Assembly: GCA_046760505.1 (NCBI GenBank)
Contig: JBHIEG010000021.1
Span: 1-35,466, forward strand
Direction: 5' to 3'
Source: CAYFZR01 sp046760505 [NCBI: Candidatus Hydrothermarchaeota archaeon]
GTDB lineage: Archaea > CAYFZR01
Length of the DNA: 35,466 nt
Shown: piece by piece, positions 1-28,721 of the stretch
Position numbering within the stretch: position 1 is the first letter of the stretch
Layout: every line of letters begins with the position of its first letter
Notes under the pieces: generated by a model
The model's input: only the letters and a program-made list of their open reading frames with translations
What the model was told of the DNA's origin: nothing
Database searches by the model: none
Made by a program: the position numbers and the translations under genes

Positions 1-39
1 GGATTAGTTGAGATTCCTGTGGTAGAGGAAGCGAAGTAG
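1..39 (+). CDS. C-terminal end of an upstream gene (partial)
   Basis: Only the last 12 codons are in the window, reading GLVEIPVVEEAK followed by TAG at 37-39. The product cannot be identified from this. It shares a frame with the following gene, whose GTG start follows the TAG directly, so the two are almost certainly co-transcribed and translationally coupled. In HdrB/HdrD-type loci the preceding gene often encodes an iron-sulfur or flavin partner, but nothing visible here confirms that. Confidence 0.5.
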   Translation, partial: GLVEIPVVEEAK

Positions 40-834
40 GTGAATCAATTGACGACACTAGACAGAATACCAGAAAAGGTAGTCTTTTTTGAAGGATGCG
101 TAACCTCTAGAAGAATGCACCATCTTCGTTTTGCGATTCGTTTTTTGCTTGAAAATTATGGTATCGATTACATCACATTAGACCCAAGGGAACAGTGTTG
201 TGGCTCACCCATATTCAGAGCTGGAGCAGCAGATATTGCAGAAAGACAATTACTTCACAATCTTAGAGAAGTTGAGAAGACCGGTAGGAATGTCGTAGTT
301 ACTGCATGCCCAGGATGTGGATCTACGCTAAAATCTGATGAAGCCGAGAAGAGGGGCATTGAGGTAGTCCATATAATGGAAATCTTCATGAAGTTAGCCG
401 AAGAAGGAAAGCTGTTTGATGGTAACTTTAGAACTCTAGAGACTACTGTAACAGCGCATTTCCCATGTCATTTGATTAGAGGCATGGACGTTGATTGTTT
501 TAAAGGATTCAAAGAAATTTTCGCCCAAATGCCGGGGGTGGAATATATTGAATTAGAAGAGGCAAATGCTTGTTGCGGTGCTGGAGGAGGAGTAAGAGCA
601 TCACAGATTGAGTTGGCGAAAAAAATCAGAGAAAGAAAAATCAACTTCATTAAAGAGACAGGGGCTAAACTATGTGTGACAATATGTCCTTTCTGTGAGA
701 TTCATATTGGAGAGGGTTTAAAGGAAGCAGAACTGCCCGTAAGGATAATGTCATTACCTTTCCTTCTTGCCTTACTAAATAATAACTTTAAGACAAAGAT
801 AGATGAAATAGTGGAAAGAGAAAGGAGTGCGTGA
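40..834 (+). CDS. HdrB/HdrD-like two-CCG-domain iron-sulfur protein
   Basis: A 264-residue soluble protein with two complete cysteine-rich CCG domains. The first has C20, C53-C54 and C90-x-x-C93. The second has C143, C178-C179 and C216-x-x-C219. In HdrB, HdrD, GlcF and related proteins this motif holds non-cubane [4Fe-4S] clusters that split disulfides or pass electrons to quinone- or thiol-type acceptors. Having both sets intact argues for an active redox subunit. It starts with GTG directly after the upstream TAG, with a GAGGAAG stretch about 10 bases before. It heads a run of membrane genes and a NapH-like polyferredoxin, so it may be the cytosolic electron input or output of a membrane complex. 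The true substrate (CoM-S-S-CoB, another disulfide, or a quinone-linked donor) is unknown. HdrB proper, TfrB-like and GlcF-like proteins are alternatives. Confidence 0.75.
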   Translation: MNQLTTLDRIPEKVVFFEGCVTSRRMHHLRFAIRFLLENYGIDYITLDPREQCCGSPIFRAGAADIAERQLLHNLREVEKTGRNVVVTACPGCGSTLKSDEAEKRGIEVVHIMEIFMKLAEEGKLFDGNFRTLETTVTAHFPCHLIRGMDVDCFKGFKEIFAQMPGVEYIELEEANACCGAGGGVRASQIELAKKIRERKINFIKETGAKLCVTICPFCEIHIGEGLKEAELPVRIMSLPFLLALLNNNFKTKIDEIVERERSA

Positions 835-838
835 TCAA

Positions 839-1198
839 ATGGAGTCCTTGATTTACACCTTGTTTCTCCTGTTTTCATTGCCCTTTGCCTATTACTACTT
901 AAAGACGACTATCTTTCCAGATCACATTGGAAAAATTAAAAGATTCGAAGGGTATGGAAAAATGAAAGAGTGCGAAGTAACATGCGACACCTCAATTCAA
1001 GAAATATCAGACGGTAAAATGTCTATAAAGGTGTTGGTTGAGCTCTCGAATGGTGGGGAGATAAGGTGTGAAATGAGCCCTTGCAACATATGCTTGGAGA
1101 AGATGAAGGAAGGAGATCTTGTAGGTGTAACAAAACTGGGATCAAGATATATCGCCCAACCACTACTGTTAAAGAGGGTGTATGGAAGATGCCAGTAA
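839..1198 (+). CDS. Small membrane-anchored hypothetical protein
   Basis: About 119 residues that I do not recognise. The N-terminus (roughly residues 3-22) is a single hydrophobic helix, MESLIYTLFLLFSLPFAYYY. The rest is a soluble domain rich in beta-type segments with four cysteines (CEVTC, CNIC) that could bind a metal or form disulfides. I place the start at the ATG at 839, because the GGAG at 824-827 is well spaced for it. An in-frame GTG at 827 would overlap that ribosome binding site. It nearly abuts the HdrB-like gene and its 3' end overlaps the next membrane gene by 10 bases, so it belongs to the same operon. It may anchor or assemble the iron-sulfur protein at the membrane, which is inference from position only. 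Confidence 0.6.
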   Translation: MESLIYTLFLLFSLPFAYYYLKTTIFPDHIGKIKRFEGYGKMKECEVTCDTSIQEISDGKMSIKVLVELSNGGEIRCEMSPCNICLEKMKEGDLVGVTKLGSRYIAQPLLLKRVYGRCQ

Positions 1199-1866
1199 CG
1201 ATAATAGGATACATAGCATTAGTACTGTTCTTTGGGATCATATTGGCTTCGCTCATGGGAATTATTCCTCAATCAAGACTACCCATTCAGTCTGCCCTCA
1301 TTGTGGCTACGCTTGTGATAGTGTTGTTAGCTTTCATCGGTAATTTCATGGGTTACTCGGTAGAATTGATTTTCCCAACCGATCTTCTTGGACAGATTAT
1401 AATCCACCCAATCACCGCTTTGATGGCAGGATTCTTTGTTGCTGGCGCTCTAGAGGCTTCTGGTGGATTTGAAGCAGCAGCTGACTTATTGGACAGGATG
1501 GCAAAGACAAGGCTCGGGTTACCAGGCACTGCCTGCATTCTTGCAAACATGCCTACGATAATTAGCATGCCGTGCGGCAGGATATTGGGCGCAGCCTTGA
1601 TGCCTGCTGCACTTTACTTTGGATGGATTTTGGCAGAGAAAACAGGAAAAAAGGAATTAATTGGAGTGCTTGTATTTGCATTTATCGTTAACGCTGCAGC
1701 ATCTTGTGGACCATCTCCGCTAGGAGGAATCGGCATGATTGGAGAAGGAATGATAGCAATTCCCCTAACTTCACTTCAAGATCCTCAGCAGACAGGGATA
1801 ATGCTGGCTACAGGAGTTTGCGCACTCGTGATGAGATTCGTTACGCCATTGCTACCTGCTGAATAG
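1189..1866 (+). CDS. Polytopic membrane protein, paralog 1 (MPCGR / SCGPSPLGG family)
   Basis: A 225-residue membrane protein with about six hydrophobic helices. I do not recognise the family with confidence. It is a paralog of the next gene. The two share H-P-I-x-A-M/L-x-A-G-F near residue 73, an NMPTI/MPCGR loop (residues 120-131) and a very conserved SCGPSPLGG loop (172-180) followed by GEG. Broken hydrophobic segments carrying conserved Asn-Pro-Thr and Gly-Pro-Ser turns recall re-entrant loops of the ion transporter (ArsB/NhaD/DASS) superfamily, but at about half the usual length. The start is the ATG at 1189. A longer reading frame back to 1081 would run through the preceding gene. Likely role, by inference: half of a heterodimeric transporter or ion-conducting unit linked to the redox genes beside it. 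Confidence 0.65.
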   Translation: MPVTIIGYIALVLFFGIILASLMGIIPQSRLPIQSALIVATLVIVLLAFIGNFMGYSVELIFPTDLLGQIIIHPITALMAGFFVAGALEASGGFEAAADLLDRMAKTRLGLPGTACILANMPTIISMPCGRILGAALMPAALYFGWILAEKTGKKELIGVLVFAFIVNAAASCGPSPLGGIGMIGEGMIAIPLTSLQDPQQTGIMLATGVCALVMRFVTPLLPAE

Positions 1867-1877
1867 GAGGCTTAAGA

Positions 1878-2606
1878 ATGGAGGAAAGATTAAAAATCGG
1901 ATACTTCTCATTCTTCTTCTTCATGATTGTCTTAGCTGCTGCTATCATACTCTACAGTAAGATGGGAGTGAAAGTGCCTCCAATCCAGACTATTCTTATA
2001 TTCATAGCAATAGTGATAATGCTGGTAAGCAAGGCAAGAATAGAAGATCTGTTAGCTGGAGTGATTTTACACCCAATAATGGCAATGTCTGCAGGCTTTC
2101 TCATAGCCGGAGCACTGGGGCTAGCGGGAGGATTTGATGCACTACTAGACCTATGCTGGAGGATTGCAGGATTCATAGACAGCATTTTCGCACCACTAAA
2201 GGGTCTTGAAATATCCTTTCTTGGCCTAGAGAAAGGAGTATCTCTTGGATTACCGTTTGTGTCTGTTATAATAGTCAACATACCAACAATCACCCCCATG
2301 CCATGTGGAAGGATAATAGGCGCCGCAGTGATTCCTGGTGTATATTACTTTGCAAAGGCGGTGGTAGGCGCCACAGGAAATACCTTGGCATTACCTGTTT
2401 TGGTAGCAGCCTTCATTGTAAACGCCGCTGCCTCATGTGGACCTTCTCCGTTAGGAGGAGTGGGGGGCATAGGCGAGGGCAACCTAGGAGTGGAGATAGG
2501 CTCATCTGGCCCATCTCAGGAGACCGGAATAATAATAGCAACCGGGGTTACGGCCCTCGTTATAGCGTTCGTTACTGGATATGCCCTAATTCCATATTTA
2601 AAGTAA
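1878..2606 (+). CDS. Polytopic membrane protein, paralog 2 (MPCGR / SCGPSPLGG family)
   Basis: A 242-residue membrane protein homologous to the preceding gene. Shared blocks include HPIMAMSAGF (65-74), NIPTITPMPCGR (134-145), the SCGPSPLGG loop (186-194) and a C-terminal TGIIIATGV segment. It carries an insertion around residues 100-120 (two short hydrophobic stretches around a Gly/Glu turn) that paralog 1 lacks. Start ATG 1878 has a GGAGG at 1866-1870 and lies 11 bases after the previous stop. The pair probably arose by gene duplication and may form a pseudo-symmetric heterodimer. The exact conservation of one cysteine in each of the MPCGR and SCGPS loops suggests functional residues near the membrane core. 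Function is unknown. Confidence 0.65.
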   Translation: MEERLKIGYFSFFFFMIVLAAAIILYSKMGVKVPPIQTILIFIAIVIMLVSKARIEDLLAGVILHPIMAMSAGFLIAGALGLAGGFDALLDLCWRIAGFIDSIFAPLKGLEISFLGLEKGVSLGLPFVSVIIVNIPTITPMPCGRIIGAAVIPGVYYFAKAVVGATGNTLALPVLVAAFIVNAAASCGPSPLGGVGGIGEGNLGVEIGSSGPSQETGIIIATGVTALVIAFVTGYALIPYLK

Positions 2607-2619
2607 AGGAGGTAATGAA

Positions 2620-2763
2620 ATGAATTTCCCTCTCTTGTTTACAATGGTCGGTGCAGGAACTTTGACTGGAATAATGATAAATATAGCTTTAGGCTACAGC
2701 CCATTTAATATTGGCGGAATACTTGGTGGTGCAGTAACTGGATTGCTAATGTTCATACTTTAG
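2620..2763 (+). CDS. 47-residue glycine-rich membrane peptide
   Basis: A short gene missed by ordinary length cut-offs. ATG 2620 is preceded by a strong ribosome binding site, AAAGGAGGT at 2605-2613, and the frame runs 47 codons to TAG 2761-2763. The product begins MNFPLLFTMVGAGTLTGIMI and is hydrophobic throughout, with small-residue motifs (GAGTLTG, GGILGGAVTG) typical of tightly packed transmembrane helices, so one long or two short helices are likely. It sits between paralog 2 and the NapH-like gene, and the next gene's GTG follows its stop without a gap. It is probably a small subunit of the same membrane assembly. Function is unknown. Confidence 0.6.
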   Translation: MNFPLLFTMVGAGTLTGIMINIALGYSPFNIGGILGGAVTGLLMFIL

Positions 2764-3504
2764 GTGTCTTCCATGGAAATAGAGCCTATCAGAAGGGTGT
2801 CCCAGTTAGTAGTACTATTCGTAGTCCTCGTAAGCCTAGGTGCCGTGTGCTCCAGGGATCCGTTCTTCATGCTACAAACTATATTCGCAAGGGGGAGTGT
2901 CCTTCCTACCTTAATCCTAACTTCTCTCGGAGGACTCATCCTTTTTACACTAATATTTGGAAGGGCATTTTGCAGTTGGGTATGTCCCTATGGAACAATA
3001 CTCGATATATTGAATGGTATAACTTCTAAGAAGTACAAGATACCTGAATTTTTGGAGTACAGATCTTTAAAGTATTCTGTGCTTGGAGGTTTTTTGATAA
3101 CTGCTTTTGTATATGGATATACCACCTTCTGCACTGTTTGTCCTGCCGGAGTATTTTTCAGATCTGTTGAGGTTGCCACGGTAGCGCCCGTGTTTCCATT
3201 TATGCTTCTACTAGCCGCATTTGTTTTTGCCATATTCTATCACGGCAGGGCTTGGTGCAGATATCTATGTCCGCTAGGTGCTTTTATCTCCTTGGTTAGT
3301 AAATTTAGCCTTACGAGATTGAAAGTTGATAGCGAAAAATGTAGAGCATGCCTCTTATGCCAAAGGACTTGTCCCATGGATTTGTTGGTAGTAGAGGATA
3401 GCATATGGAAAAATAGAAACTCTGTACCTCCAGAAGAATGCATAAGATGTGGTGACTGCATTAACGTTTGTCCCGCTGGGGCAATAGAATTTGGAAGGTT
3501 ATAA
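2764..3504 (+). CDS. NapH/CcoG-like membrane polyferredoxin
   Basis: A 246-residue membrane iron-sulfur protein of the NapH type, with about four transmembrane helices. Membrane-side cysteine motifs are C70-x3-C74-P, C123-x2-C126-P and C165-x3-C169-P. Two C-terminal ferredoxin clusters follow: C193, C196, C199, C203 and C226, C229, C232, C236. NapH-family proteins pass electrons between a membrane quinol-type carrier and other redox partners or thiols. It closes the operon that begins with the HdrB-like gene, so together they could move electrons between a cytosolic CCG-domain protein and the membrane. GTG 2764 directly follows the previous stop. ATG 2773 is an alternative start that shortens the product by three residues. 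Confidence 0.85.
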   Translation: MSSMEIEPIRRVSQLVVLFVVLVSLGAVCSRDPFFMLQTIFARGSVLPTLILTSLGGLILFTLIFGRAFCSWVCPYGTILDILNGITSKKYKIPEFLEYRSLKYSVLGGFLITAFVYGYTTFCTVCPAGVFFRSVEVATVAPVFPFMLLLAAFVFAIFYHGRAWCRYLCPLGAFISLVSKFSLTRLKVDSEKCRACLLCQRTCPMDLLVVEDSIWKNRNSVPPEECIRCGDCINVCPAGAIEFGRL

Positions 3505-3667
3505 TCAGATCAAATTATTCTTCATACAGTAATAAACATTATTAAGTTATACGAGGTAGGTATCAGTACATACTTTTCAAACAAAACTTTTATCTTTTGT
3601 TACACAATACTATTGATAGTGTTGCTACTCGTTCAGGAAGAGGTAATGGATAGGATGGTGAGGGTAC

Positions 3668-4195
3668 ATGAATTCCGTGTTAAACGATTACTTCAGAGAA
3701 CTTGTCTTAGAGGTAGCGGGGGAAGAAGGGATCGACATCGTATCCGTTTTGGGAGGAAAAGAGGCTACCGATGAAGAACTTGCTCAGGAGACAGGATTAA
3801 GAGTCAATACGGTAAGGAAGACCCTTTACAAATTGTATGATAAACATCTTGCCTCCTTCGTGAGAAAGAGGGATAAAAGCACGGGCTGGTACATATACGT
3901 CTGGAAGTTGGACCTCGAGAGAATCAGCGAAGTCTTGCTCGCTGAAAGATACGAATTACTAGAAAAAATAGAAAAACGCTTGGATTATGAGAAAAATCAC
4001 ATGTTCTTTCATTGTTGCTCTGAAAATGGTGTTTGTACCAAGATCCCTTTTGAGACCGCTGCTGAAGCCAACTTTGTTTGTCCTAAGTGTGGGAACCATC
4101 TAGAGTTACTAGACAATTCGGAGATTATAAACAAACTTGAACGAGAAAGGGAACAAATATATCATGAAATAGAGATTTTAAAGCAATTTCAGTGA
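3668..4195 (+). CDS. tfe: Transcription initiation factor E, alpha-type subunit (TFE)
   Basis: A 175-residue archaeal basal transcription factor that helps TBP/TFB-recruited RNA polymerase open promoters. Residues 1-90 form a winged-helix domain with the typical helix DEELAQETGLRVNTVRKTLY. Residues 91-110 are a charged linker helix. Residues 112-145 form a zinc ribbon ending FVCPKCGNHL (C138, C141), and a C-terminal coiled coil follows. The first zinc knuckle is atypical: C116-C117 then C123 instead of the usual close pair. Length matches archaeal TFE. A GGTGAGG at 3656-3662 supports ATG 3668. The 163 bases upstream, after the NapH-like gene, contain AT-rich promoter-like sequence, for example ACTTTTATCTTTT near 3587-3599. 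The gene appears to be transcribed alone. Confidence 0.93.
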   Translation: MNSVLNDYFRELVLEVAGEEGIDIVSVLGGKEATDEELAQETGLRVNTVRKTLYKLYDKHLASFVRKRDKSTGWYIYVWKLDLERISEVLLAERYELLEKIEKRLDYEKNHMFFHCCSENGVCTKIPFETAAEANFVCPKCGNHLELLDNSEIINKLEREREQIYHEIEILKQFQ

Positions 4196-4237
4196 ATAAC
4201 TTGAAGCCCCATAAAAAATTTAGGTTACTCAAGGGTA

Positions 4238-4250
4238 AGTTTTATATTAT
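4238..4250 (+). promoter_or_regulatory. Probable TATA element of the decaheme cytochrome gene
   Basis: AGTTTTATATTAT lies about 36 bases before ATG 4281. Archaeal transcription usually starts about 26 bases from the TATA centre, which predicts a start near 4271 and a very short leader carrying the GAGGGG at 4271-4276. The placement is from motif and spacing only. Confidence 0.45.
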
Positions 4251-4280
4251 GTTACGATTACATCCCTAACGAGGGGTTGT

Positions 4281-4979
4281 ATGAGGAAGATATCAATAGG
4301 TTTAGTTTTCATAACAATTCTTCTGTTCATAGCGATAATACCTGCGATCTCAGAGGAGAAGCCAGAGAACCCTGAAGAAGTAAACTATACGAAGTCTTTT
4401 TGTTACGGATGTCATGACGTCGCTCACAATGTTCATGCAACAAAGGCGGTAGATTGTTCTCAATGTCATGGAAATCTTCCAAAGGTATTCATTCCTGAAT
4501 GCGTAAGGTGTCATACCCCGCCAATCCACAAAATCCACGAGGCTCCTGCCAGAGAAGACTGCACGAAATGTCACGGCGAAATAGCAGGGATACACGCCAA
4601 GTTAGGGGAAGTTATATGCTCGAGATGTCATGGGACAGATGTGGCGAAAATACACGGAGGAGAGACTAGTTGTGAAAGGTGCCATGGATCTGTTCCAAAC
4701 ATAGTGAAACCGCAAGCAAAAGAGGGAGAGATAGTCTGTCAGGCTTGTCACCAAGATAACCTGCTCACAATTCATGAAGAAATTGCTACTGGTAAAGAAA
4801 AGTGTTACAAGTGTCACGGGACCGTTCACTTCATTCACGCAAAAACGAGACTAGAAAAAGAAGGGAAAAAAGGACCCAGTTGCGTAACGTGTCACAGGGA
4901 AGTTGAGATCACCATACCTGAATGCACTCAGTGTCATAAGCCCGATATCATACATGCTCTCAGCAGACTTGTAGGATAG
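4281..4979 (+). CDS. Secreted decaheme c-type cytochrome
   Basis: A 232-residue protein with an N-terminal signal sequence (hydrophobic core about residues 5-22, then PAISEE). There are ten CxxCH heme sites, with first cysteines at 41, 59, 74, 94, 113, 131, 153, 175, 201 and 215. Ten further histidines lie outside these motifs (49, 52, 83, 86, 105, 125, 165, 183, 186, 225), exactly enough for bis-histidine ligation of all ten hemes. One heme per about 20 residues is very dense. It should sit on the outer face of the membrane and carry electrons outward, as multiheme cytochromes do in methane- and alkane-oxidising archaea and in Archaeoglobales. It lacks an obvious membrane anchor or surface-layer domain, so it is probably a soluble periplasm-like shuttle. 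It is followed by an F420H2-oxidoreductase-like gene. Confidence 0.93.
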   Translation: MRKISIGLVFITILLFIAIIPAISEEKPENPEEVNYTKSFCYGCHDVAHNVHATKAVDCSQCHGNLPKVFIPECVRCHTPPIHKIHEAPAREDCTKCHGEIAGIHAKLGEVICSRCHGTDVAKIHGGETSCERCHGSVPNIVKPQAKEGEIVCQACHQDNLLTIHEEIATGKEKCYKCHGTVHFIHAKTRLEKEGKKGPSCVTCHREVEITIPECTQCHKPDIIHALSRLVG

Positions 4980-4990
4980 GGAAACCCTCT

Positions 4991-5002
4991 TATTTTTTTT
5001 AA
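4991..5002 (+). terminator. Oligo-T tract after the decaheme gene
   Basis: A T-rich run TATTTTTTTTTA-like stretch follows the cytochrome stop codon by about a dozen bases. Archaeal RNA polymerase commonly terminates at such oligo-T tracts without a hairpin. It lies only a few bases before the next start codon (5005), so it may cause partial termination or simply be part of the AT-rich leader of the next gene. Confidence 0.3.
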
Positions 5003-5004
5003 AA

Positions 5005-5994
5005 ATGAAAAAAGAGAAAATAGGCTTCAACAACTTAGAAAAAGAGGTAATAAAAAAAGGCCTTTGTTCCTATTGCGGAACATGTATAGGCGTCTGTCCT
5101 GTTAGATGCATAGGAATCGTGGACGAGACCATCTCCTTGGTAGATGAATGTAAAGAATGTGGCGTATGTTTGTCGAAGTGTCCGAGATCGAATCTTAACG
5201 TGAATCCAGAAGATCTTGGACCCCATTACGATGAGTATCTAGGACCTTACTCAAAAATTACATGTGCTAAATCTAAGAGAGATGAGATCATTAGAGTTTC
5301 TCAAGATGGAGGCGTAATAACTTCTCTACTCACTTATTTATGTGATTTAGGCGATTTCATAGTAGCTGTAACCAGGGATAAGGAATGGAAGCCCATACCC
5401 GTTTTGACCAGTGATAAAAATGATATAATTAATGCCGCCGGCTCAAAATATTCTGTAGCAAGTCCAAATAGAGTTCTAAGTGGCGTTAAGGATTCGGTAT
5501 CTGTGGTAGGTACACCATGCCAAATGGAAGGTCTAAGGAATATAATCTTGAACCCCAAGGGTGCTAAAAAGTTAGCTTCTAAAATAAATTTCCTGATAGG
5601 CTTTTACTGCACAGAAAATTTTGTTTACTCGAAGTTAAAGAGTTTTTTAGTGGGGAGGAAGATTGACCTAAAAAGTGTTAGAAAATTTGATATAAAGAGG
5701 GGAAAATTCATTATACATGAAAGAGAAATCCATGAATTCCCTATCTCTGCTTTGGAAGAGTGTATTTCTAGCGGATGTCACTTTTGTAGAGACTTCACTG
5801 CTATGATGGCAGACATCTCGGTAGGGAGTTTGGGCGTCCCGCCCGATCATAATTCGGTTATTATCAGGACAGAGAAAGGACTTAACTTGTGGAGTGCCTG
5901 TGTAAAGGAAGGATACATAGAGGAAGGTGAGACTGAGGTAAATCTAAAGCCTATAAGGAAGTTATCACAGAGAAAAAGGGAGCGAAAAATATAA
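5005..5994 (+). CDS. FpoF/FqoF-like F420H2 oxidoreductase (FrhB-family) protein
   Basis: A 329-residue protein with two N-terminal ferredoxin clusters (C21, C24, C27, C31 and C49, C52, C55, C59) fused to an FrhB-type domain. FrhB hallmarks are SQDGGVITSLL near residue 95, GTPCQMEGLRN near 170, and the later segment CISSGCHFCRDF with ADISVGSLG near 250-275. This order, ferredoxins then FrhB, is that of FpoF/FqoF, which oxidises F420H2 with FAD and passes electrons through iron-sulfur clusters to the Fpo/Fqo membrane complex or to other partners. No other fpo/fqo genes are in view, so it may act as a free-standing F420H2:ferredoxin-type module. It lies between a decaheme cytochrome and Mtd. No clear ribosome binding site precedes ATG 5005. 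Confidence 0.82.
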   Translation: MKKEKIGFNNLEKEVIKKGLCSYCGTCIGVCPVRCIGIVDETISLVDECKECGVCLSKCPRSNLNVNPEDLGPHYDEYLGPYSKITCAKSKRDEIIRVSQDGGVITSLLTYLCDLGDFIVAVTRDKEWKPIPVLTSDKNDIINAAGSKYSVASPNRVLSGVKDSVSVVGTPCQMEGLRNIILNPKGAKKLASKINFLIGFYCTENFVYSKLKSFLVGRKIDLKSVRKFDIKRGKFIIHEREIHEFPISALEECISSGCHFCRDFTAMMADISVGSLGVPPDHNSVIIRTEKGLNLWSACVKEGYIEEGETEVNLKPIRKLSQRKRERKI

Positions 5995-5997
5995 AGT
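5985..5997 (+). promoter_or_regulatory. Probable BRE/TATA promoter of mtd
   Basis: AAAAATATAAAGT, preceded by the BRE-like purine-rich GCGA, overlaps the last codons of the FpoF-like gene. The predicted start is near 6018, just before the AGGAGGG ribosome binding site at 6021-6027. This suggests mtd has its own promoter in addition to any read-through. Confidence 0.5.
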
Positions 5998-6033
5998 ACT
6001 ATAGTTTTCAAGCACCTACTAGGAGGGATGGAG

Positions 6034-6864
6034 ATGGTAGTAAAAGTTGGCGTAGTTAAATGTGGAGCCATTGCTACTTCTGCGATGGTGGATCTTTTAT
6101 TAGACGAGAGAGCTGATAGAAAGGATATTTCTACTAGGGTAGTGGGTAGTGGCGCAAAGATGGGTCCAGAAGAAGCGGAAGAAGCGGTTAATAAAATTTT
6201 AGAATTTGACCCTGACATAGTTATATACGTAGGACCAAATCCAACAGTTGCTGGACCAAAAAAGGCTAGAGAACTGTTATCCAAGTCTGGAAAGCCTTCT
6301 CTAATCATTGGAGATGCTCCAGGCGTAAAAGCAAAGGAGGAAATGGAGAAAGAAGGTCTTGGATACCTTCTTATAAGAGCAGATTCTATGATTGGGGCCA
6401 GAAGAGAATTTCTTGATCCTTCAGAGATGGCAATATTCAACGGAGACCTAATTAAGGTTTTAGCGTGCACTGGAGCCTTTAATATAGTTGTAGAGGCCAT
6501 AGATGGTATGATTGAAGCCGTGAAGGAAGGTAGAGGGGTAGAACTCCCAAGGATTGTTGTTACGAGAGATAAGGCCGTAGAAGCGGCTAACTTCAGCAAT
6601 CCGTATGCAAAAACCAAGGCCATGGCTGCTTATGAGATTGCCACAAAGGTCGCTGATTTAGATGTTGAGGGATGTTTTGTGGTACAGGACCCGAACAAGT
6701 ATATCCCAATCGTCTCAGCAGGTCACGAGATGCTTAGAATTGCTAGCAAATTAGCGGAAGAAGCAAGAGAAATAGAAAAATATGGTGACACCTTATTCAG
6801 AAGACCTCACTTACCGGAAGGTAAATTGGTGCAAAAGACAGAACTTATGAAAAAACCTGAATAG
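6034..6864 (+). CDS. mtd: F420-dependent methylene-tetrahydromethanopterin dehydrogenase
   Basis: A 276-residue enzyme that reversibly oxidises methylene-H4MPT to methenyl-H4MPT with F420, a central step of methanogenesis and of its reversal. The N-terminus MVVKVGVVKCGAIATSAMVD and the segments VVGSGAKMGPE, YVGPNPTVAGPKKARE, IIGDAPGVKAKEEME and RADSMIGARREFLDP are typical of Mtd, and the length matches the family. I chose ATG 6034 because AGGAGGG (6021-6027) is 6 bases upstream. ATG 6028 is too close to that site. It lies directly downstream of the FpoF-like gene but appears to have its own promoter. It shows that this organism carries the H4MPT C1 branch, whichever direction it runs. Confidence 0.96.
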   Translation: MVVKVGVVKCGAIATSAMVDLLLDERADRKDISTRVVGSGAKMGPEEAEEAVNKILEFDPDIVIYVGPNPTVAGPKKARELLSKSGKPSLIIGDAPGVKAKEEMEKEGLGYLLIRADSMIGARREFLDPSEMAIFNGDLIKVLACTGAFNIVVEAIDGMIEAVKEGRGVELPRIVVTRDKAVEAANFSNPYAKTKAMAAYEIATKVADLDVEGCFVVQDPNKYIPIVSAGHEMLRIASKLAEEAREIEKYGDTLFRRPHLPEGKLVQKTELMKKPE

Positions 6865-6903
6865 GCTCACTTTACTCATCTTTTTTAACAACTTTTCAAC
6901 CAT

Positions 6904-6914
6904 ATGATTTAAGT
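6904..6914 (+). promoter_or_regulatory. TATA element suggesting a leaderless transcript
   Basis: ATGATTTAAGT, centred near 6909, is about 26 bases upstream of ATG 6936. That spacing puts the predicted transcription start at or next to the start codon, and no ribosome binding site is visible. A leaderless mRNA is therefore likely. Confidence 0.4.
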
Positions 6915-6935
6915 CTAAGTTATTGTAAAGATCCT

Positions 6936-7385
6936 ATGGTAGATAACATGCTTGATTCATTCAATTTCCGTCCGATAAGGGTTTCATCACGGGAGTTATT
7001 AGGAGAACTAAAGAATAAACTTACGAATAAAGAATATACAGAAATTTCAGATATATCTAACTCTAGAGTTGGAGAGATCCTTGATTTGCTCAAAGAAAGC
7101 GATTTCCTAGGGGAATTTGAGGTCATTAAGGCGGTTGAGAGAGAAGAAAATGCAAAGTTCGATGCTGTAGCAAGCATTGTTTCGCCAATCAGTTGCAACG
7201 CCTGTTCTACGTCTAAAGATAATCAGAGCTGGCTGATATACGATTACAGAGACTATGAAACCCTGTTAAACTTCAGTTTGGTCGTTTGCGCGGACTGTGG
7301 AACCATTGAGGAACAGGCAAGTGACACTCCCCTCAGCGTTGCAATTGGACTCTGTAAGTTACTGAAACTAGATAAAAAAATTTAA
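6936..7385 (+). CDS. Hypothetical protein with winged-helix-like segment and two CxxC motifs
   Basis: A 149-residue protein I do not recognise. The N-terminal half (about residues 15-65) has helix patterns compatible with a winged helix, including ISNSRVGEILDLLKESDFLG. The C-terminal half has CNAC (about residue 87) and CADC (about 118), spaced like a zinc ribbon or another metal-binding fold. This would fit a small transcription regulator or sensor, but the assignment is weak. The gene stands alone between mtd and tRNA-Lys. The upstream TATA spacing suggests a leaderless message. An internal ATG at 6948 is an alternative start. Confidence 0.6.
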   Translation: MVDNMLDSFNFRPIRVSSRELLGELKNKLTNKEYTEISDISNSRVGEILDLLKESDFLGEFEVIKAVEREENAKFDAVASIVSPISCNACSTSKDNQSWLIYDYRDYETLLNFSLVVCADCGTIEEQASDTPLSVAIGLCKLLKLDKKI

Positions 7386-7417
7386 GGCAATTTTCGATAT
7401 AAATTTGTAACAATTGT

Positions 7418-7491
7418 GGGCCTGTAGCTTAGTCTGGGAGAGCAACGGGCTCTTAACCCGTCGGTCGGGGGTTCAAATCCCTCCAGGCCCG
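7418..7491 (+). tRNA. tRNA-Lys (anticodon CTT)
   Basis: A complete 74-base cloverleaf. The acceptor stem pairs GGGCCTG (7418-7424) with CAGGCCC (7484-7490) and the discriminator is G7491. The D arm is GCTTAGTCTGGGAGAGC. The anticodon stem ACGGG/CCCGT encloses the loop CTCTTAA with anticodon CTT at 7452-7454. The T arm is GGGGG-TTCAAAT-CCCTC. No intron is present and the CCA end is not encoded, which fits the CCA-adding enzyme gene in this window. AT-rich TATA candidates lie at 7374-7386 and 7397-7406. The former gives the better spacing. Confidence 0.95.
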
Positions 7492-7510
7492 CATTTTAAT
7501 AGGTGGTTTC

Positions 7511-8071
7511 ATGCGAAAATCTGCCTTAGAAATATACGAGAGGCTCCAGACTATGGCAGATGACATAAAGCTAAGGTACAAGCACGGAGAGTTAGAAGAC
7601 TGGAGAGAGGTGGCTGCTTTCATTGATACCCTCAATAAATATGCTGACTCTCTTCCTCCAAGCATATTTGAGAGAATCAATGCAGGGCTTCCAGAAATCA
7701 TAGATAAGATGAGAGAAAGTACAAGAAAAGAATTAAAGGCTCTTAGAGAGAAAACTAGAGAATATCTCTCCCAGTATGAAAAAGGCGATATATCAGAGCA
7801 AGAATTTGAAGACATATTAACAGGAATTCTTGAAAAAAGAGACGAAATTACAGAGGGATTCATGGCTGGAGTAGCATCTGAATATCGGGAAATTGAAGAA
7901 GACGTAAACGTTTATAGGGAGAGAATAAAAAAGAAATTTTATGAAAGGAGAGAAGTTATAACCGATTTCTTGAGATTTGCCAACGATATTGAGGAGTATG
8001 TTAGCGGAGAAGAAAAATATCTCATAGCGGCTATTTTAACTCTGGTGAGTAAGTTAGAGGCACGTAAATGA
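7511..8071 (+). CDS. Coiled-coil hypothetical protein coupled to the CfbC-like gene
   Basis: A 186-residue, highly charged and almost entirely helical protein (Glu, Lys and Arg rich), with long heptad-like stretches between residues 60 and 160. It has no cysteine, signal peptide or membrane helix, and I do not recognise the family. The ribosome binding site AGGTGG at 7501-7506 precedes ATG 7511, which lies only 19 bases after the tRNA-Lys gene, so the two may share a transcript. Its last codons overlap the start of the NifH-like gene by four bases (ATGA), which implies translational coupling. A structural or chaperone-like partner of that ATPase is a reasonable guess but unproven. Confidence 0.65.
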   Translation: MRKSALEIYERLQTMADDIKLRYKHGELEDWREVAAFIDTLNKYADSLPPSIFERINAGLPEIIDKMRESTRKELKALREKTREYLSQYEKGDISEQEFEDILTGILEKRDEITEGFMAGVASEYREIEEDVNVYRERIKKKFYERREVITDFLRFANDIEEYVSGEEKYLIAAILTLVSKLEARK

Positions 8072-8880
8072 GGAATATCTTTAGAATGGCTATTTATGGA
8101 AAAGGGGGCATTGGCAAGTCGACTATTGCCTCCAATTTAGCGGTTTCATTCTCTCTTTTAAAGAAATCTACCCTTCTAATGGGATGCGACCCAAAAAGAG
8201 ATACAACCAGAAATCTCCTTTCTGGAAAATTGATTCCAACAGTGTTAGATAGTATACAAAAGAATAACAGTATTACTCTCGAAAAAGTAGTCCATAGAGG
8301 CTATAACGGCGTTTTTTGCGTTGAATCTGGAGGTCCAGAGCCAGGGATCGGTTGTGCTGGAAGGGGGATAATACTAGCAATCGAAACTCTTGAGAAGCTT
8401 GGCTTGTTCGACCAAGTTGACACGGTAATATTTGACGTGCTTGGAGATGTTGTTTGCGGAGGATTCGCGATGCCAATCAGGAAAGGCTATGCAAACTATG
8501 TTTACATCGTAATTTCTGGGGAATTCATGTCTTTATATGCTGCTAACAATATTTGTAAGGGTATCAAGCGTTTTTCGGATAGGAAAGGAGCATTACTAGG
8601 CGGATTGATATATAACTCTCGTGATGTTCCTAATGGTCTAGAAATATCAAAAAAATTTGCGAAAAAGATTGGAACAGATATTTTAGGAGAGATACCAAGA
8701 AGTAACTTAATATTAAAGGGAGATATCCAGAGAAAAACCGTATTTGAGGCTTTTCCAGATTCGGATATAGTGGAAAGGTTTAAGGAATTAACTCATAACA
8801 TCATGAAATCTTCTCCCACTACTCCAAAGCCGCTTTCCTATGAAGAACTGGAGGATCTTGCTATTCAAACTCTATTGTAG
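8068..8880 (+). CDS. cfbC: NifH-family ATPase, probably CfbC (Ni-sirohydrochlorin reductive cyclase component)
   Basis: A 270-residue NifH-like protein. The P-loop GKGGIGKST is at residues 11-19, followed by [13 protein letters not shown] near 39-51. The two cysteines that bind the dimer-bridging [4Fe-4S] cluster are visible: C96 in GCAGRG and C130 in [11 protein letters not shown]. No nitrogenase genes adjoin it. In archaea with methyl-coenzyme M reductase the usual stand-alone NifH homolog is CfbC, which donates electrons to CfbD during coenzyme F430 synthesis, and the rest of the window belongs to such an organism. A group IV NflH of other function is the main alternative. CfbD is not in the window. 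The 3' end overlaps the convergent guaAb gene by about 20 bases. Confidence 0.72.
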
Positions 8881-9790
8881 CAGGTGGCTTATCGGTGATG
8901 TCATATAAAACTCTACTTACCTCAGGTATCTCGCTCGTGACTCTCTGTTGAATTTTTTTCAGAAGGCTCCAAGGAGCCTCCAATATGTTTGCAGTCATGC
9001 CATCTGATGAGAGAACTATTCTCACCGCTACCATGTAACCATATGCTCTTATGTCCCCTTTCACCCCAGTAGCCTTTCCAGAGAGTAGAACCGCAAATGC
9101 CTGCCACGGCCTTATATCTAGACTTTTAATCTCTTCCTTTACGATTGCATCTGCCTTTCTTACTATCTCAACCTTATCGGGAGTCACTTCTCCGACGATT
9201 CTAACTGCAAGACCTGGACCTGGAAATGGCATTCTTTCTGCAATCTCATCAGGCAAATTTAGGTATTTTGCTAGAATCCTCACTTCATCTTTATAAAGAT
9301 CTGCCAGAGGTTCAACCAGTTTTAGTCCAAATTTTTCGGGTAATCCGCCCACGTTGTGATGGGATTTTATTCCTCCTCTTGACTCTATCCAATCCGGTGC
9401 TATGGTTCCCTGAACCAAAAAACTTGCTCCAATCTTTTTTGCTTCTTCCTCAAAAATTCGAATGAATTCTTCTCCTATTATTTTTCTCTTTTCTTCAGGA
9501 TCTTCGATTCCTCTTAGTCTGTTGAAGAACCTCTCTTTTGCATCGATAAATGTTAGATTCATGTTAGAAAATGTTTCTTTTATCTTTTCCGGCTCTCCAA
9601 GCCTCATGAATCCAGTGTCGACAAATATTGGGGTTAAATTTTCTCCTATTGCCCGATACGTCAAAGCAGCACATGTTGAGCTATCAACACCACCAGAGAG
9701 GGCTATTACTGCTTTTTCATTTTTTATTATTTCTCTTATTTCCTTAACCTTCTCCTCTATAAATTTTTCAGGATCGAACATAGGCATCAT
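8861..9790 (-). CDS. guaAB: GMP synthase, ATP-pyrophosphatase (synthetase) subunit
   Basis: A 309-residue subunit that adenylates XMP and uses ammonia to make GMP. The PP-loop motif LSGGVDSST lies near residue 32, and later segments [32 protein letters not shown] and [11 protein letters not shown] are typical of GMP synthase, ending with the dimerisation domain. As in many archaea it is separate from the glutaminase subunit, which is not in this window. The start is probably ATG 9790, overlapping the stop codon of purQ. Other ATGs follow at 9787 and 9781. It is the last gene of a minus-strand purine operon. Confidence 0.95.
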
Positions 9791-13315: not shown

Positions 13316-13554
13316 TCTTTTACGGTTATTTCATAATCCTGTATAACCGGATTCGCAAGCAATTTATTGCATGCATCTTCTATTTCCTTTAACACCTCTT
13401 CCTTTCTCTCTTTATTCATGCCTATTTCATATACTTTAATGGTTCTAACGTAGTCTACATCAAATCCTAAAAGGCGCAAAGACTTCTTTACCGTCTCTCC
13501 CTCTGCATCTAATACACCTGGTTTCAATTTTACCCTAACCTCAACTTTATGCAA
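13312..13554 (-). CDS. purS: FGAM synthase, small subunit PurS
   Basis: An 80-residue structural subunit that bridges PurL and PurQ. Its sequence follows the family pattern closely: VEVRVKLKPGVLDAEG, then VKKSLRLLGF near residue 24 and a final PVIQDYEI. The start is TTG 13554, with AGGAG about nine bases upstream on the minus strand. It faces the OB-fold-like gene at 13666 across a short promoter region. Genes for PurS and PurL are usually adjacent. Here about 365 bases and a gene on the other strand separate them. Confidence 0.93.
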   Translation of the reverse strand: MHKVEVRVKLKPGVLDAEGETVKKSLRLLGFDVDYVRTIKVYEIGMNKERKEEVLKEIEDACNKLLANPVIQDYEITVKD

Positions 13555-13593
13555 AGGTCCACTCTCCTGTTTTTACTTCTTGATCTGTTCTAC

Positions 13594-13605
13594 TTCAAAT
13601 ATAAT
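13594..13605. promoter_or_regulatory. Near-symmetric TATA element between purS and the OB-fold gene
   Basis: AAATATAATTTT can act as a TATA box in either direction. On the minus strand it predicts a start near 13573, about 18 bases before the purS TTG. On the plus strand it predicts a start near 13625 for the gene at 13666. This is motif and spacing evidence only. Confidence 0.4.
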
Positions 13606-13665
13606 TTTTTTACTTTGACAGCCTTGCAGGAAAGCCTTGAGTTGTCTACCACCCTTTACTACAGT

Positions 13666-13974
13666 ATGGATATAAGGCATATATGTCTCGCTACCGCCCT
13701 CCTAGGTACAATACTCTTGAATGCACTTGCAAATCACATTGAACCCTTGCATACAGACATAAAATCTCTTGAGAAAATGTCAGAAGGGAGTTACGTTTCC
13801 GTAGAAGGCGTTGTAACAAAAAGTGGTAAAAATTCTTGGATAAAGGACGAGAGTGGCAGAAAATGTATGGTAAACGGAAGACTAAAAGAAGGAAGTAAAG
13901 TCAGGGTAACAGGTTATCTTAGTTATTACTACAATAAACCCGTAATTAGACCCAAGAAAATTGTTGGAATATGA
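13666..13974 (+). CDS. Membrane-anchored OB-fold-like protein
   Basis: About 102 residues. An N-terminal hydrophobic helix (MDIRHICLATALLGTILLNA) precedes a domain of alternating beta strands with SVEGVVTKSGKNSWIKDESG and KVRVTGYLSYYYNKPVI, the pattern of an OB fold of the nucleic-acid-binding (tRNA_anti-like) or NfeD type. I use ATG 13666. The frame extends back to 13549, but that would overlap the start of purS. The stop overlaps the next start by four bases (ATGA), coupling it to the TctA-like membrane protein. Function is unknown. An extracytoplasmic or membrane-surface binding domain is plausible. Confidence 0.55.
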   Translation: MDIRHICLATALLGTILLNALANHIEPLHTDIKSLEKMSEGSYVSVEGVVTKSGKNSWIKDESGRKCMVNGRLKEGSKVRVTGYLSYYYNKPVIRPKKIVGI

Positions 13975-15155
13975 ATACGACTAATATTTTTCTATGCACG
14001 ATTTTAGGCATGCTGTTGGGAATTTTGACAGGCTTAGTCCCGGGATTGCATCAGAATACAGTTGCTCTTGTGTTATTTGCTCTGTCTCCCCTTGACTCAC
14101 TAGAAACGTCATGCTTAATATTTTCAATGAGCATATCTCATAACTTATTCGATTTTATTCCGGCGCTTTTGTTTTGTGTACCAGATCCTGAACTATCGAT
14201 ACTTCAGAATCCCACAATCATTTTAATCAGGGAATATGGATTTAAAGGGGTGATCAGTTGCATAAATCTTGGTTACCTATTGGGTTTTTTATTTTCATGT
14301 ATCATCTGCATCTCACTGCTTCTTATGCCAGTCAGGGATCTCTATTTACTGATTCGACCTTATCTAGCATACATCCTAATTTTGGTATCTCTTTTCTTTA
14401 TTTTGCACGAGAAAAATAGAATGATGGCTCTGATAGTTTTTCTCATGGCTGGTTTTTATGGTTTGGCTTCCTTTGATATGATACCCCTAATAAAGAAACA
14501 TTCAATGGTAAAATATTCGGATTGTCTTTTTCCTATCTTTACTGGTCTTTTTGGGATGACTTCATTAATCATGAGCGAAAAAAGTTTAAAATCAAGGGAG
14601 AAAAAATTTCAAATCGACTGGAGAGGTTTAACTAAATTTAGTTTGATAGGATCCCTTGTAGCATTATTGATAAGTCTACTACCCAGTTTAAGTCCAGCTC
14701 AGGGTGTGGCAATGGCTCACTATTTATTGGGAAGAACAGGAATTGGATTTTTGGTTTCTTCTTCAGCAGTGAATTCTGGCGACACAATCTTCTCTGTAAT
14801 TTCATGCTACACAATAAAAAACCCAAGAAGTGGTGTTGGAGTCTTAATAGAAGATTTAATAAGGGTAAACCTTTTTGAAGTCCTATTGATGTTATCCATA
14901 GGATTAATATCTCTAGGACTTTCTTCTCTAGTCTTTAATTTCTTAATAAAGAACCTAGAAATGCTTAACATCGAAAGAATAAAAATTCCCGTAGTGCTCT
15001 GTTTGTTCATCCTTCTATTCGTTTTCTCTGGTCCATTTGGTATTCTAGTTAGTTTAGTTGGTGTTAGCATTGGGTTGTTACCTCATTTACATGGAATTTC
15101 AAGGATACACTGCATGGGTGTTTTGATTGTTCCTACCATAATCTTTTTGTTGTAA
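13971..15155 (+). CDS. TctA-like (archaeal COG1784-type) polytopic membrane protein
   Basis: A 394-residue membrane protein with ten or more hydrophobic segments. The first loop, LGILTGLVPGLHQNTVAL, matches the glycine/proline signature of the TctA (DUF112) membrane subunit of tripartite tricarboxylate transporters. The second half has LLPSLSPAQGVAMAHYLLGR, a repeat of that motif, consistent with an internal duplication. Bacterial TctA works with a small TctB and a periplasmic TctC. Neither is seen here, and archaeal members commonly stand alone with unknown substrate. It is translationally coupled to the small OB-fold-like gene upstream. Confidence 0.72.
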   Translation: MNTTNIFLCTILGMLLGILTGLVPGLHQNTVALVLFALSPLDSLETSCLIFSMSISHNLFDFIPALLFCVPDPELSILQNPTIILIREYGFKGVISCINLGYLLGFLFSCIICISLLLMPVRDLYLLIRPYLAYILILVSLFFILHEKNRMMALIVFLMAGFYGLASFDMIPLIKKHSMVKYSDCLFPIFTGLFGMTSLIMSEKSLKSREKKFQIDWRGLTKFSLIGSLVALLISLLPSLSPAQGVAMAHYLLGRTGIGFLVSSSAVNSGDTIFSVISCYTIKNPRSGVGVLIEDLIRVNLFEVLLMLSIGLISLGLSSLVFNFLIKNLEMLNIERIKIPVVLCLFILLFVFSGPFGILVSLVGVSIGLLPHLHGISRIHCMGVLIVPTIIFLL

Positions 15156-27449: not shown

Positions 27450-28721
27450 TCAGAGCTCTTTATATCTTTGAAGCAATTTCTCGTATATAGGAAATCTACC
27501 ACATAGGTCTATAACTTTTTTCTTTACCTCTTCTTTCGTTCTTTCATCATCTTTGTTCTCAAGGACCCTATTGATCAACTCACTGATCTCGATCATTTCT
27601 CTTTCTTTCATTCCCCTTGTTGTTATAGCAGGAGTGCCTACCCTGATGCCACTAGTAATCCTTGGAGGTCTTTTGTCAAAAGGTATCGCATTTTTGTTAA
27701 CGATTATCCCCGCATCTCCTAAAGCATCCTCAGCTTCCTTTCCGGTCATGTTTTTTTCAGTTAGATCAATTAAAATGAGATGATTATCGGTTCCTCCCGA
27801 AATCAATGAGTAACCGCGCTCTATCAACGCATTTGCCATGGTTTTAGCATTTTTAACGATTTGTTTTTGGTATTCCTTGAATTCATTCGTCATGGCTTCT
27901 TTGAATGCGACCGCCTTGGCCGCTATAACATGCTCTAAAGGACCACCCTGTATGCCTGGAAACAATGTTCTGTCAATTTCTTGGGCGAATTCCTCTTTGC
28001 AGAGAATCATACCTCCTCTTGGTCCTCGAAGGGTTTTATGAGTAGTTGTGGTAACAAAATCAGCGTATGGAATGGGGCTCTGATGTAGTCCTGCTACGAT
28101 TAGGCCTGCGATGTGCGCGATATCAGCCATGTGATACGCGCCGACTTCATCTGCTATCTCTTTGAATAAGGAGAAGTCTATCTCCCTTGGATAAGCGCTT
28201 GCCCCTGAGACAATCATATCTGGTTTGTATTTTTTTGCGAGTTTTCTAACTTCATCATAGTCTATAGTCTGAGTTTCTCTCGATACTCCGTAGTGCACCA
28301 CCTTGAAGAACTTGCCTGAAAAATTTACTGGACTTCCATGAGTTAAGTGACCACCGTCAGATAACCTCATCCCCATTATGGTATCTCCCGTATTTAAAAC
28401 CGAAAAATAGACAACCATATTTGCTTGCGATCCAGAATGAGGCTGTACGTTTGCATGTTCTGCATTAAAAATCTTTTTTGCCCTTTCTATTGCAAGTTCT
28501 TCCGCTTCATCAACCCATTCACACCCTCCGTAGTATCTTTTTCTTGGATATCCTTCAGCATATTTGTTCGTCATCACACAACCCTGTGCCTCTAAAACCG
28601 CCTCGCTAGCATAGTTTTCAGATGCTATAAGGTTTAATTGATATATTTGTCTCTCTATATCTTTTTTAATTACTTTTGCTATGTCTGGATCTATATTTTG
28701 GAGAAAACTCAATTTTTTCAC
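27450..28721 (-). CDS. glyA: Serine hydroxymethyltransferase
   Basis: A 423-residue PLP enzyme converting serine and a tetrahydropterin to glycine and methylene-pterin. The PLP-lysine motif [17 protein letters not shown] is near residue 225. Other landmarks are [12 protein letters not shown] near 32, [12 protein letters not shown] near 97 and SASYPREIDF-type sequence (here [12 protein letters not shown]) near 173. GTG 28721 follows the adk stop by six bases. In a folD-purN operon the acceptor is most likely tetrahydrofolate, although some archaeal GlyA enzymes use methanopterin. Confidence 0.96.

What the first reader, a model, noticed from the sequence alone, without database searches (positions are those of the whole stretch)
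1..3504. Unnamed redox-membrane operon: HdrB/HdrD-like protein, two paralogous membrane proteins, tiny membrane peptides and a NapH-like ferredoxin
Seen: six genes spaced by 0-14 bases or overlapping, with two complete CCG domains at one end and NapH-type cysteine motifs plus two ferredoxin clusters at the other. Between them lie two membrane paralogs with strict MPCGR and SCGPSPLGG loops, a single-helix protein and a 47-residue membrane peptide. Known: CCG proteins handle disulfides or quinone-type electrons, and NapH proteins exchange electrons with membrane carriers. Inference: this could be a membrane complex that couples a disulfide- or ferredoxin-linked redox step to ion movement or to a membrane electron carrier.
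Basis: partly seen in the sequence, partly recalled or inferred. Interest (0 to 1): 0.75.

Follow-up and report, generated by a model that had tools for sequence, protein, structure and literature searches.

The report
Redox operon with split carrier pair
A set of neighbouring genes found in scattered anaerobic archaea and some bacteria joins electron-handling iron-sulfur proteins to a membrane carrier that is split into two mirror-image halves with four never-changing cysteines, and it may be an undescribed way of moving electrons across a membrane.

Summary
In detail: a tight six-gene operon at 40-3504, and its core recurs. Seventeen other genomes carry the two membrane paralogs (C, D), each time as one adjacent or fused pair, nearly always with a CxxC membrane protein (B) and tiny two-helix peptides (E). 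New: C and D look like the two inverted repeats of an ion-transporter (IT) superfamily carrier (CitMHS/ArsB/DASS type), here often on separate genes. Support: the AlphaFold2 model of C (pLDDT 76) aligns best with DASS carriers; the profile hits both repeats of a CitMHS carrier; some natural C-D fusions match CitMHS; loop charges indicate opposite orientation. All 34 C/D rows keep two cysteines, in the hairpin and broken-helix loop that enclose the substrate in ArsB; none of 20 CitMHS-type carriers has these motifs. Related operons add ferredoxins predicted to lie outside and HdrB-like, NapH-like or flavin modules inside. Best reading: a transmembrane electron conduit whose four cysteines hold an intramembrane cluster, similar in plan but unrelated to RnfA/RnfE. 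The cluster and the electron flow are inferred. Main rival: a real carrier feeding a redox enzyme.

The parts
1..39 (+). 3' end of a cut-off upstream gene; in 6 related loci (L001, L003, L004, L007, L008, L009) the gene just before the CCG gene is a two-cluster ferredoxin protein that I call HdrC-like
   Evidence: the fragment itself is too short to assign and shows no clear likeness to those C-termini
40..834 (+). A: HdrB/TfrB-like protein with two complete CCG cysteine domains
   Evidence: PF02754 E 2.9e-33, two stretches; best NCBIfam match TfrB, 189.6 bits, below its cut-off of 385
827..1198 (+). B: single-helix membrane protein with a small CxxC domain, read by eye as cytoplasmic (K/R after the helix)
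   Evidence: no family; relatives in 16 of 18 loci, CxxC kept in 16 of 16
1189..1866 (+). C: first inverted-repeat half of an IT-type carrier, predicted N-out/C-in
1573..1575 (+). codon of invariant Cys129 of C, in the predicted re-entrant hairpin (MPCGR)
1705..1707 (+). codon of invariant Cys173 of C, in the predicted broken-helix loop (SCGPSPLGG)
1878..2606 (+). D: second inverted-repeat half, predicted N-in/C-out
2304..2306 (+). codon of invariant Cys143 of D (MPCGR)
2436..2438 (+). codon of invariant Cys187 of D (SCGPSPLGG)
2620..2763 (+). E: 47-residue two-helix glycine-rich membrane peptide; half of the loci have two separate copies
   Evidence: family members in 17 of 18 loci, window included; two separate copies in 9
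2764..3504 (+). F: NapH-like membrane protein with Fer4_5 motifs and two 4Fe-4S ferredoxin motifs
4281..4979 (+). possible partner, not in the operon: decaheme c-type cytochrome (10 CxxCH) with a hydrophobic N-terminus
5005..5994 (+). possible partner, not in the operon: FrhB/FpoF-like protein with an N-terminal ferredoxin domain

Best explanation
The operon encodes a membrane electron-transfer complex. C and D form an antiparallel pair that together make one IT-superfamily (elevator-carrier) fold. The four invariant cysteines, two from each half, sit at the centre where carriers hold their substrate, and they bind a redox metal centre, most likely an iron-sulfur cluster. This centre passes single electrons between cytoplasmic Fe-S proteins (HdrB-like A and its HdrC-like neighbour, NapH-like F, perhaps the CxxC domain of B; in some relatives a NAD(P)H-type flavin domain) and acceptors outside (TAT-type or anchored ferredoxins in relatives; perhaps the decaheme cytochrome in this window). 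The E peptides are small accessory helices, often two per C/D pair. Shown directly: operon, recurrence, fusions, cysteine invariance. Shown by prediction and profile: fold and inverted topology. Inferred: the cluster, the electron path and any coupling to ions.
For: Cys in 34 of 34 C/D rows at both sites; neither motif occurs in any of 20 CitMHS-type carriers. Cys129 lies between helices 110-124 and 130-152, and Cys173 in the break between helices 156-171 and 181-188; in ArsB the hairpin and loop motifs of both halves enclose the substrate (PMC13381914, passages). Fold: the top seven VIA rows are DASS carriers, Z 11.0 (NaS1, 197 residues aligned, rmsd 4.0 A) to 8.0; ArsB 7.0. Sequence: the C/D profile hits both repeats of one CitMHS protein; PF03600 hits the L007 and L002 fusions at E 8e-6; hhalign fused C-D vs CitMHS 95.2%, E 2.9e-8 for that single comparison. 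Inverted topology and a CARDB domain N-terminal to C in L003. Fusions in 12 of 18 loci. Ferredoxins with TAT-like starts, NapH-flavin fusions, HdrC/HdrB-like neighbours. In L041: Sdh/Frd-like, NrfH-like and NrfD-like neighbours. RnfA/RnfE is a precedent for paired inverted paralogs with 2+2 Cys and a mid-membrane [2Fe-2S] (PMC12174285, passages). The ArsB authors note that weak contacts suit translocation, in contrast to As-S bonds (passage), which speaks against four Cys in a carrier site.
Against: No cluster is shown. The only model of the C-D pair (fusion L007) has pLDDT 53.6 and is too poor for measuring Cys-Cys distances. Foldseek found nothing at E <= 0.001; its first three rows are unrelated, and the best DASS row has E 1.2, probability 0.90. 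The aligner warns that Z under about 13 for helical folds may be generic. 5 of 9 fusions gave no CitMHS hit. The known function of the fold is solute transport. The hhalign register in the loop is uncertain. The anchored (non-TAT) ferredoxins have charges that favour 'outside' in only 6 of 9. L039 and L040 show no ferredoxin-type ORF, though both contigs end just downstream. In this window no exported ferredoxin is visible, and the cytochrome lies beyond an unrelated gene (TFE).
Confidence: 0.5

Rival explanations
1. C-D is a true secondary carrier, for example of a dicarboxylate, a thiophilic metalloid or metal, or a sulfur compound, that brings in or removes the substrate of the neighbouring redox enzymes. 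The cysteines bind the substrate.
For: The fold is that of IT carriers. In L041 the core sits beside Sdh/Frd-like and malic-enzyme-like genes and ORFs that I read by eye as fumarase (not scanned); DASS carriers move C4 acids (VcINDY with fumarate and malate).
Against: One identical 2+2 cysteine set is kept beside very different enzymes. Ferredoxins predicted outside and the B and E subunits are not expected of a carrier. ArsB, a metalloid carrier of this fold, binds arsenite by hydrogen bonds of polar residues, and its authors contrast this with As-S bonding (passages).
Confidence: 0.25
2. C-D is a thiol-disulfide relay that carries electrons across the membrane through cysteine pairs, as DsbD/CcdA does, with the HdrB-like protein acting on the inner disulfide.
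For: CCG proteins handle thiols (established knowledge). DsbD_2-like proteins lie in the L007 and L010 operons and one like L007's in L044.
Against: No profile match of C/D to a small (four-row) DsbD-like set (0.4% and 0.2%). Operons with a DsbD_2 gene already have that relay as a separate protein.
Confidence: 0.12
3. NapH (F) and B carry the electrons; C-D-E is only a membrane anchor or a site for a quinone-like carrier.
For: NapH-like proteins are proposed as transmembrane electron-transfer modules in their own right (PMC8238504, passages).
Against: No NapH relative was found by BLAST in L038-L042 (E <= 1e-4) although C-D is there; an anchor needs no strict cysteines.
Confidence: 0.1

Closest known systems
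Ion-transporter (IT) superfamily carriers: CitMHS (PF03600), ArsB, DASS (NaS1, NaCT, INDY, Pho90)
   Same: Same predicted repeat plan (three helices, a short helix, re-entrant hairpin, broken helix, last helix), same inverted two-repeat topology with a cytoplasmic link, and distant sequence relation
   Different: Repeats on separate genes in 6 of 18 loci; four invariant cysteines whose motifs are absent from 20 CitMHS-type carriers; beside redox genes in 16 of 18 loci; B and E subunits; scores stay below Pfam's cut-off
RnfA-RnfE / NqrE-NqrD
   Same: A pair of paralogs in opposite orientation, each with two Cys at helix breaks, in a redox gene cluster
   Different: No sequence relation found (hhalign 0.1% against three Rnf-Nqr rows); the RnfC model matches only ferredoxin stretches of three L041 proteins, far below its cut-off; PF02508 absent from 15 of 17 carrier genomes
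NapH-like electron-transfer systems
   Same: F has the NapH Fer4_5 and Fer4 motifs
   Different: Below the NapH model cut-off (142.6 vs 213 bits), and coupled to C-D-E; no nitrate reductase among the window ORFs scanned
HdrB / TfrB (CCG proteins)
   Same: Two complete CCG domains in A; an HdrC-like neighbour in relatives
   Different: Far below the HdrB and TfrB cut-offs; no HdrA- or TfrA-size gene in the visible operon
DsbD/CcdA thiol relays
   Same: Membrane proteins with conserved cysteines that move electrons
   Different: No profile match; in some loci a DsbD_2 protein occurs in addition

Membership tests
IT superfamily (CitMHS/ArsB/DASS) | repeat plan: 3 helices, membrane-parallel helix, hairpin, broken helix, last helix | tested here: met
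   AF2 of C, pLDDT 76.2, pTM 0.69, compared with ArsB as described; DASS rows top the VIA list, Z 11.0-8.0. A prediction; Foldseek alone was weak
IT superfamily (CitMHS/ArsB/DASS) | two repeats of inverted topology joined on the cytoplasmic side | tested here: met
   Loop 4-5 K+R mean C 3.0, D 0.5; N-terminal C 0.1, D 3.5 (some C N-termini trimmed); CARDB before C in L003; charged linkers in fusions. Prediction, not experiment
IT superfamily (CitMHS/ArsB/DASS) | sequence match over the curated Pfam cut-off | tested here: not met
   PF03600: best 25.6 bits vs 31.9, 29.7; significant by E-value only; 5 of 9 fusions gave no hit. So a distant relative, not filed as CitMHS
IT superfamily (CitMHS/ArsB/DASS) | transports a solute | not testable with these tools
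   needs transport assays
Rnf/Nqr | RnfA/RnfE homology (PF02508) | tested here: not met
   not among Pfam hits of 18 C/D members at E up to 1; hhalign against three Rnf-Nqr rows 0.1%
Rnf/Nqr | inverted paralog pair with two Cys each | tested here: met
   an analogy of plan, not homology
Rnf/Nqr | intramembrane [2Fe-2S] cluster | not testable with these tools
   needs purified protein
CCG (HdrB/TfrB) proteins | two CCG domains | tested here: met
   PF02754, two stretches
HdrB of heterodisulfide reductase | score over the HdrB equivalog cut-off | tested here: not met
   86.3 vs 345.15 bits (TIGR03288)
NapH | Fer4_5 domains plus ferredoxin motifs | tested here: met
   PF12801 E 1.1e-22, PF00037
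NapH | score over the NapH/MauN model cut-off | tested here: not met
   142.6 vs 213.05 bits (TIGR02163)
DsbD/CcdA | DsbD-type membrane domain | tested here: not met
   not among Pfam hits; hhalign 0.4% and 0.2% against four DsbD-like rows

The most novel reading that the evidence does not exclude
A redox-driven ion pump evolved from a secondary carrier: the C-D pair swings like an elevator carrier, but its cargo site holds an iron-sulfur cluster, so each electron crossing the membrane is tied to movement of Na+ or H+ through the old carrier sites. This would be a second invention, independent of Rnf/Nqr, of a carrier-like electron pump.
Probability: 0.25. Interest if true: 0.95.

Novelty: new variant of a known kind. 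Interest (0 to 1): 0.75.

Why it matters
If the reading is right, a solute-carrier fold has been turned into an electron conductor, by a route separate from Rnf/Nqr. That would add a new type of membrane electron-transfer core to the five classes named in one survey of flavinylation-linked gene clusters (NapH-like, MsrQ-like, PepSY, DsbD, RNF/NQR-like; PMC8238504, passages). It gives a testable candidate for how some anaerobes connect cytoplasmic thiol, NAD(P)H, F420H2 or succinate pools to acceptors outside the cell; [quoted passage not shown] The C/D genes, separate in some genomes and fused in others, also show an inverted-repeat carrier in two-gene form.

Tried and rejected
Homology to Rnf was my first hypothesis, because of the 2+2 Cys and the paralog pair. 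The profile test failed (only three Rnf rows), so only the analogy is kept.

The AF2 model of the whole C-D fusion was too poor (pLDDT 53.6, pTM 0.43) and was not used for a fold search. Adding the D-only rows to that alignment failed because MAFFT put them on the N half; these five rows were dropped.

Relatives in viral contigs: none confirmed. Plasmids: none. PDB by sequence: none at E <= 10. Pfam for single C/D halves: nothing of use. One extra weak hit in a phylum scan (G184) proved to be an ordinary CitMHS carrier and became evidence for the fold.

In one search the search for E drifted into C/D proteins; I repeated it with ORFs of at most 100 aa and use only that count.

Absence of Rnf in 15 of 17 carrier genomes has no base rate here and is weak evidence. 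The tree separates C and D within 24 archaeal-type rows (93/93 and 99/97); the ten rows of L038-L042 join on long branches, so one common duplication is not shown.

Anchor charges of the non-TAT ferredoxins (L007, L009, L044; nine proteins) favour an outside cluster in six, are equal in one and speak against it in two.

Two papers opened for the string NapH gave only strain NaphS2 or naphthalene in the passages shown (PMC13416013, PMC13343851). The listings of paper searches showed nothing that describes the C/D pair; the library is partial and I saw only listings and passages.
Full report
OBSERVATION. A carries two CCG domains and F is NapH-like with two ferredoxin motifs; B, C, D and E match no known family at a meaningful score. 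C and D are 44% identical. G+C is 0.38-0.46 in 1-kb windows over 1-9000, so nothing there suggests a mis-join.

RECURRENCE. One scan of the collection of 84,980 species genomes, with two exact eight-residue patterns, gave 10 loci, titled Methanomassiliicoccales, Thermoplasmata, Euryarchaeota, Altiarchaeales, Undinarchaeales and one deltaproteobacterium (all MAGs). It misses more distant members by design. Profile searches found C/D in 4 of 292 genomes of the phylum of L001 (a fifth match there was an ordinary CitMHS carrier), 4 of 29 in the phylum of L007, 6 of 247 in that of L010, 1 of 10 in that of L008 and 1 of 148 in that of L004 (centre genomes included). That makes 17 distinct carrier genomes, each with exactly two matches, side by side or fused. 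Of 18 loci (window included), C and D are fused in 12 and adjacent genes in 6. B-like genes are in 16 of 18 (in L044 the contig ends next to C-D, L008 lacks one) and keep CxxC in 16 of 16. E-like peptides are in 17 of 18, two separate copies in 9; in the five fusions L038-L042 a further E-like stretch sits at the C-terminus (its place was shown for four before the output was cut). A CCG gene is in L001-L009 and L044. NapH-like genes are in eight of L001-L010 (not L004, whose contig ends soon after E, nor L010) and in L044. Ferredoxin-type or CCG neighbours were seen in 16 of 18 loci; L039 and L040, whose contigs end just downstream of C-D or E, showed none. The family is rare and patchy in these samples.

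WHAT C AND D ARE. AlphaFold2 of C with 20 rows gave pLDDT 76.2 and pTM 0.69: helices 5-22, 33-53, 74-91, a helix 93-105, a hairpin 110-124/130-152, a broken helix 156-171/181-188 and a last helix 197-218. The structural second look put DASS carriers in the top seven rows (NaS1 Z 11.0, 197 residues, rmsd 4.0 A; Pho90 10.1; NaCT 9.2), with VcINDY and ArsB at about 7. The tool warns that Z under about 13 may be generic for helical folds, and Foldseek itself was weak, so I tested by sequence. The C/D profile matched a CitMHS/ArsB-type carrier twice, at residues 5-115 and 228-344, with the same profile segment both times: that is the carrier's repeat. PF03600 matched the C-D fusions of L007 and L002 (E 8.3e-6 and 8.4e-6) across both halves, L043 (0.023) and L001 (0.2) weakly, and five other fusions not at all; in whole-genome searches it also rang at the fusions of G007, G307 and G001 (1.8e-7, 2.9e-6, 2.5e-4). 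Profile-profile comparison of 12 fused C-D proteins with 20 CitMHS-type carriers gave 95.2% and E 2.9e-8 (a single comparison) over 335 columns; small Rnf (3 rows) and DsbD (4 rows) controls gave 0.4% or less. So C and D are best read as two inverted repeats of the IT fold, distant from the named families.

TOPOLOGY. The loop between hairpin and broken helix holds on average 3.0 K+R in C and 0.5 in D; the N-terminus 0.1 in C and 3.5 in D; the C-terminus 1.2 and 0.1 (10 rows each; several C N-termini were cut at my chosen domain start). In L003 the C protein carries an N-terminal CARDB domain (Pfam 1.9e-7) behind a hydrophobic N-terminus, so its membrane part probably starts outside; L005 has a similar N-terminal extension but no Pfam hit. 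This agrees with ArsB, whose halves join on the cytoplasmic side (PMC13381914, passages), and with the charged linkers of the fusions.

THE CYSTEINES. Cys129 and Cys173 of C, and Cys143 and Cys187 of D, are kept in all 34 rows examined (17 C, 17 D; L006, near-identical to L005, left out), also in L038-L042 at about 33-43% identity. They lie at the predicted hairpin turn and broken-helix loop, the elements that enclose the substrate in ArsB. Neither motif is present in any of the 20 CitMHS-type carriers. Exact residue equivalence is not claimed, because the alignment register in the loop is uncertain.

SURROUNDINGS. Archaeal relatives add Fe-S proteins whose N-termini look TAT-like (RR motifs by eye in L001, L002 and L008; Pfam TAT_signal 22.6 bits for one of L001, just under its cut-off of 22.7) or have a single N-terminal anchor (L007, L009, L044), where flanking charges favour an outside cluster in six of nine. 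Two-cluster, HdrC-like proteins precede the CCG gene in six loci. NapH is fused to a Fer4_20/Pyr_redox_2 domain in L001 and L005. In L041 the core sits beside a TfrA/SdhA-like flavoprotein, an NrfH-like cytochrome, an HdrC-like protein, NrfD-like and molybdopterin proteins and a malic-enzyme-like protein, all below the models' cut-offs; L038 and L042 show ORFs of similar size and sequence. In the window a decaheme cytochrome, an FrhB/FpoF-like protein and a protein I read as Mtd (not scanned) follow on the same strand after TFE; a link is only a suggestion.

MECHANISM. The constant core is C-D-E-B and the enzymes around it vary; that fits a conductor better than a substrate carrier. I propose that the four cysteines hold an Fe-S cluster mid-membrane that passes electrons between inner and outer Fe-S proteins. 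RnfA/RnfE does this with an unrelated inverted pair (PMC12174285, passages). If electrons run outward they move along the membrane potential, which could drive uphill oxidations such as that of succinate; this step is inference. Whether ions are pumped is open.

KNOWN OR NOT. No Pfam or NCBIfam model covers B, C, D or E (C/D also 45). Seven literature searches listed no description. [quoted passage not shown]

Noticed in passing
window 4281-6864: A decaheme c-type cytochrome, an FrhB/FpoF-like protein with a ferredoxin domain and a protein that reads like F420-dependent Mtd (not scanned) follow on the same strand, so an F420H2-to-outside electron route could be encoded near the operon.
   Followed up: partly
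window 31224-31760 and 31761-32318: Two tandem, separate MgtE membrane-domain genes (PF01769), another pair of half-size membrane proteins in the same window.
   Followed up: partly
window 13971-15155: A TctA-family membrane protein (PF01970) next to a small ORF at 13549-13974.
   Followed up: no
window 8068-8880: A NifH/frxC-family ATPase (PF00142); no nitrogenase partner was noticed among the window ORFs (not searched).
   Followed up: no
L041 (also L038, L042): C-D-E beside a TfrA/SdhA-like flavoprotein, an NrfH-like cytochrome and a malic-enzyme-like protein in L041: a possible succinate-oxidation island.
   Followed up: partly
L001, L002, L003, L005, L006, L007, L009, L010, L044, downstream of C/D: E peptides come in two tandem copies here, matching the two-fold C/D pair; the window has one.
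   Followed up: yes
window 27450-28721: The window's GlyA-like protein is at best 70% identical to the 196 sampled genomes of the phylum of locus L004, so the host may belong to that phylum but is not close to a sampled species.
   Followed up: partly
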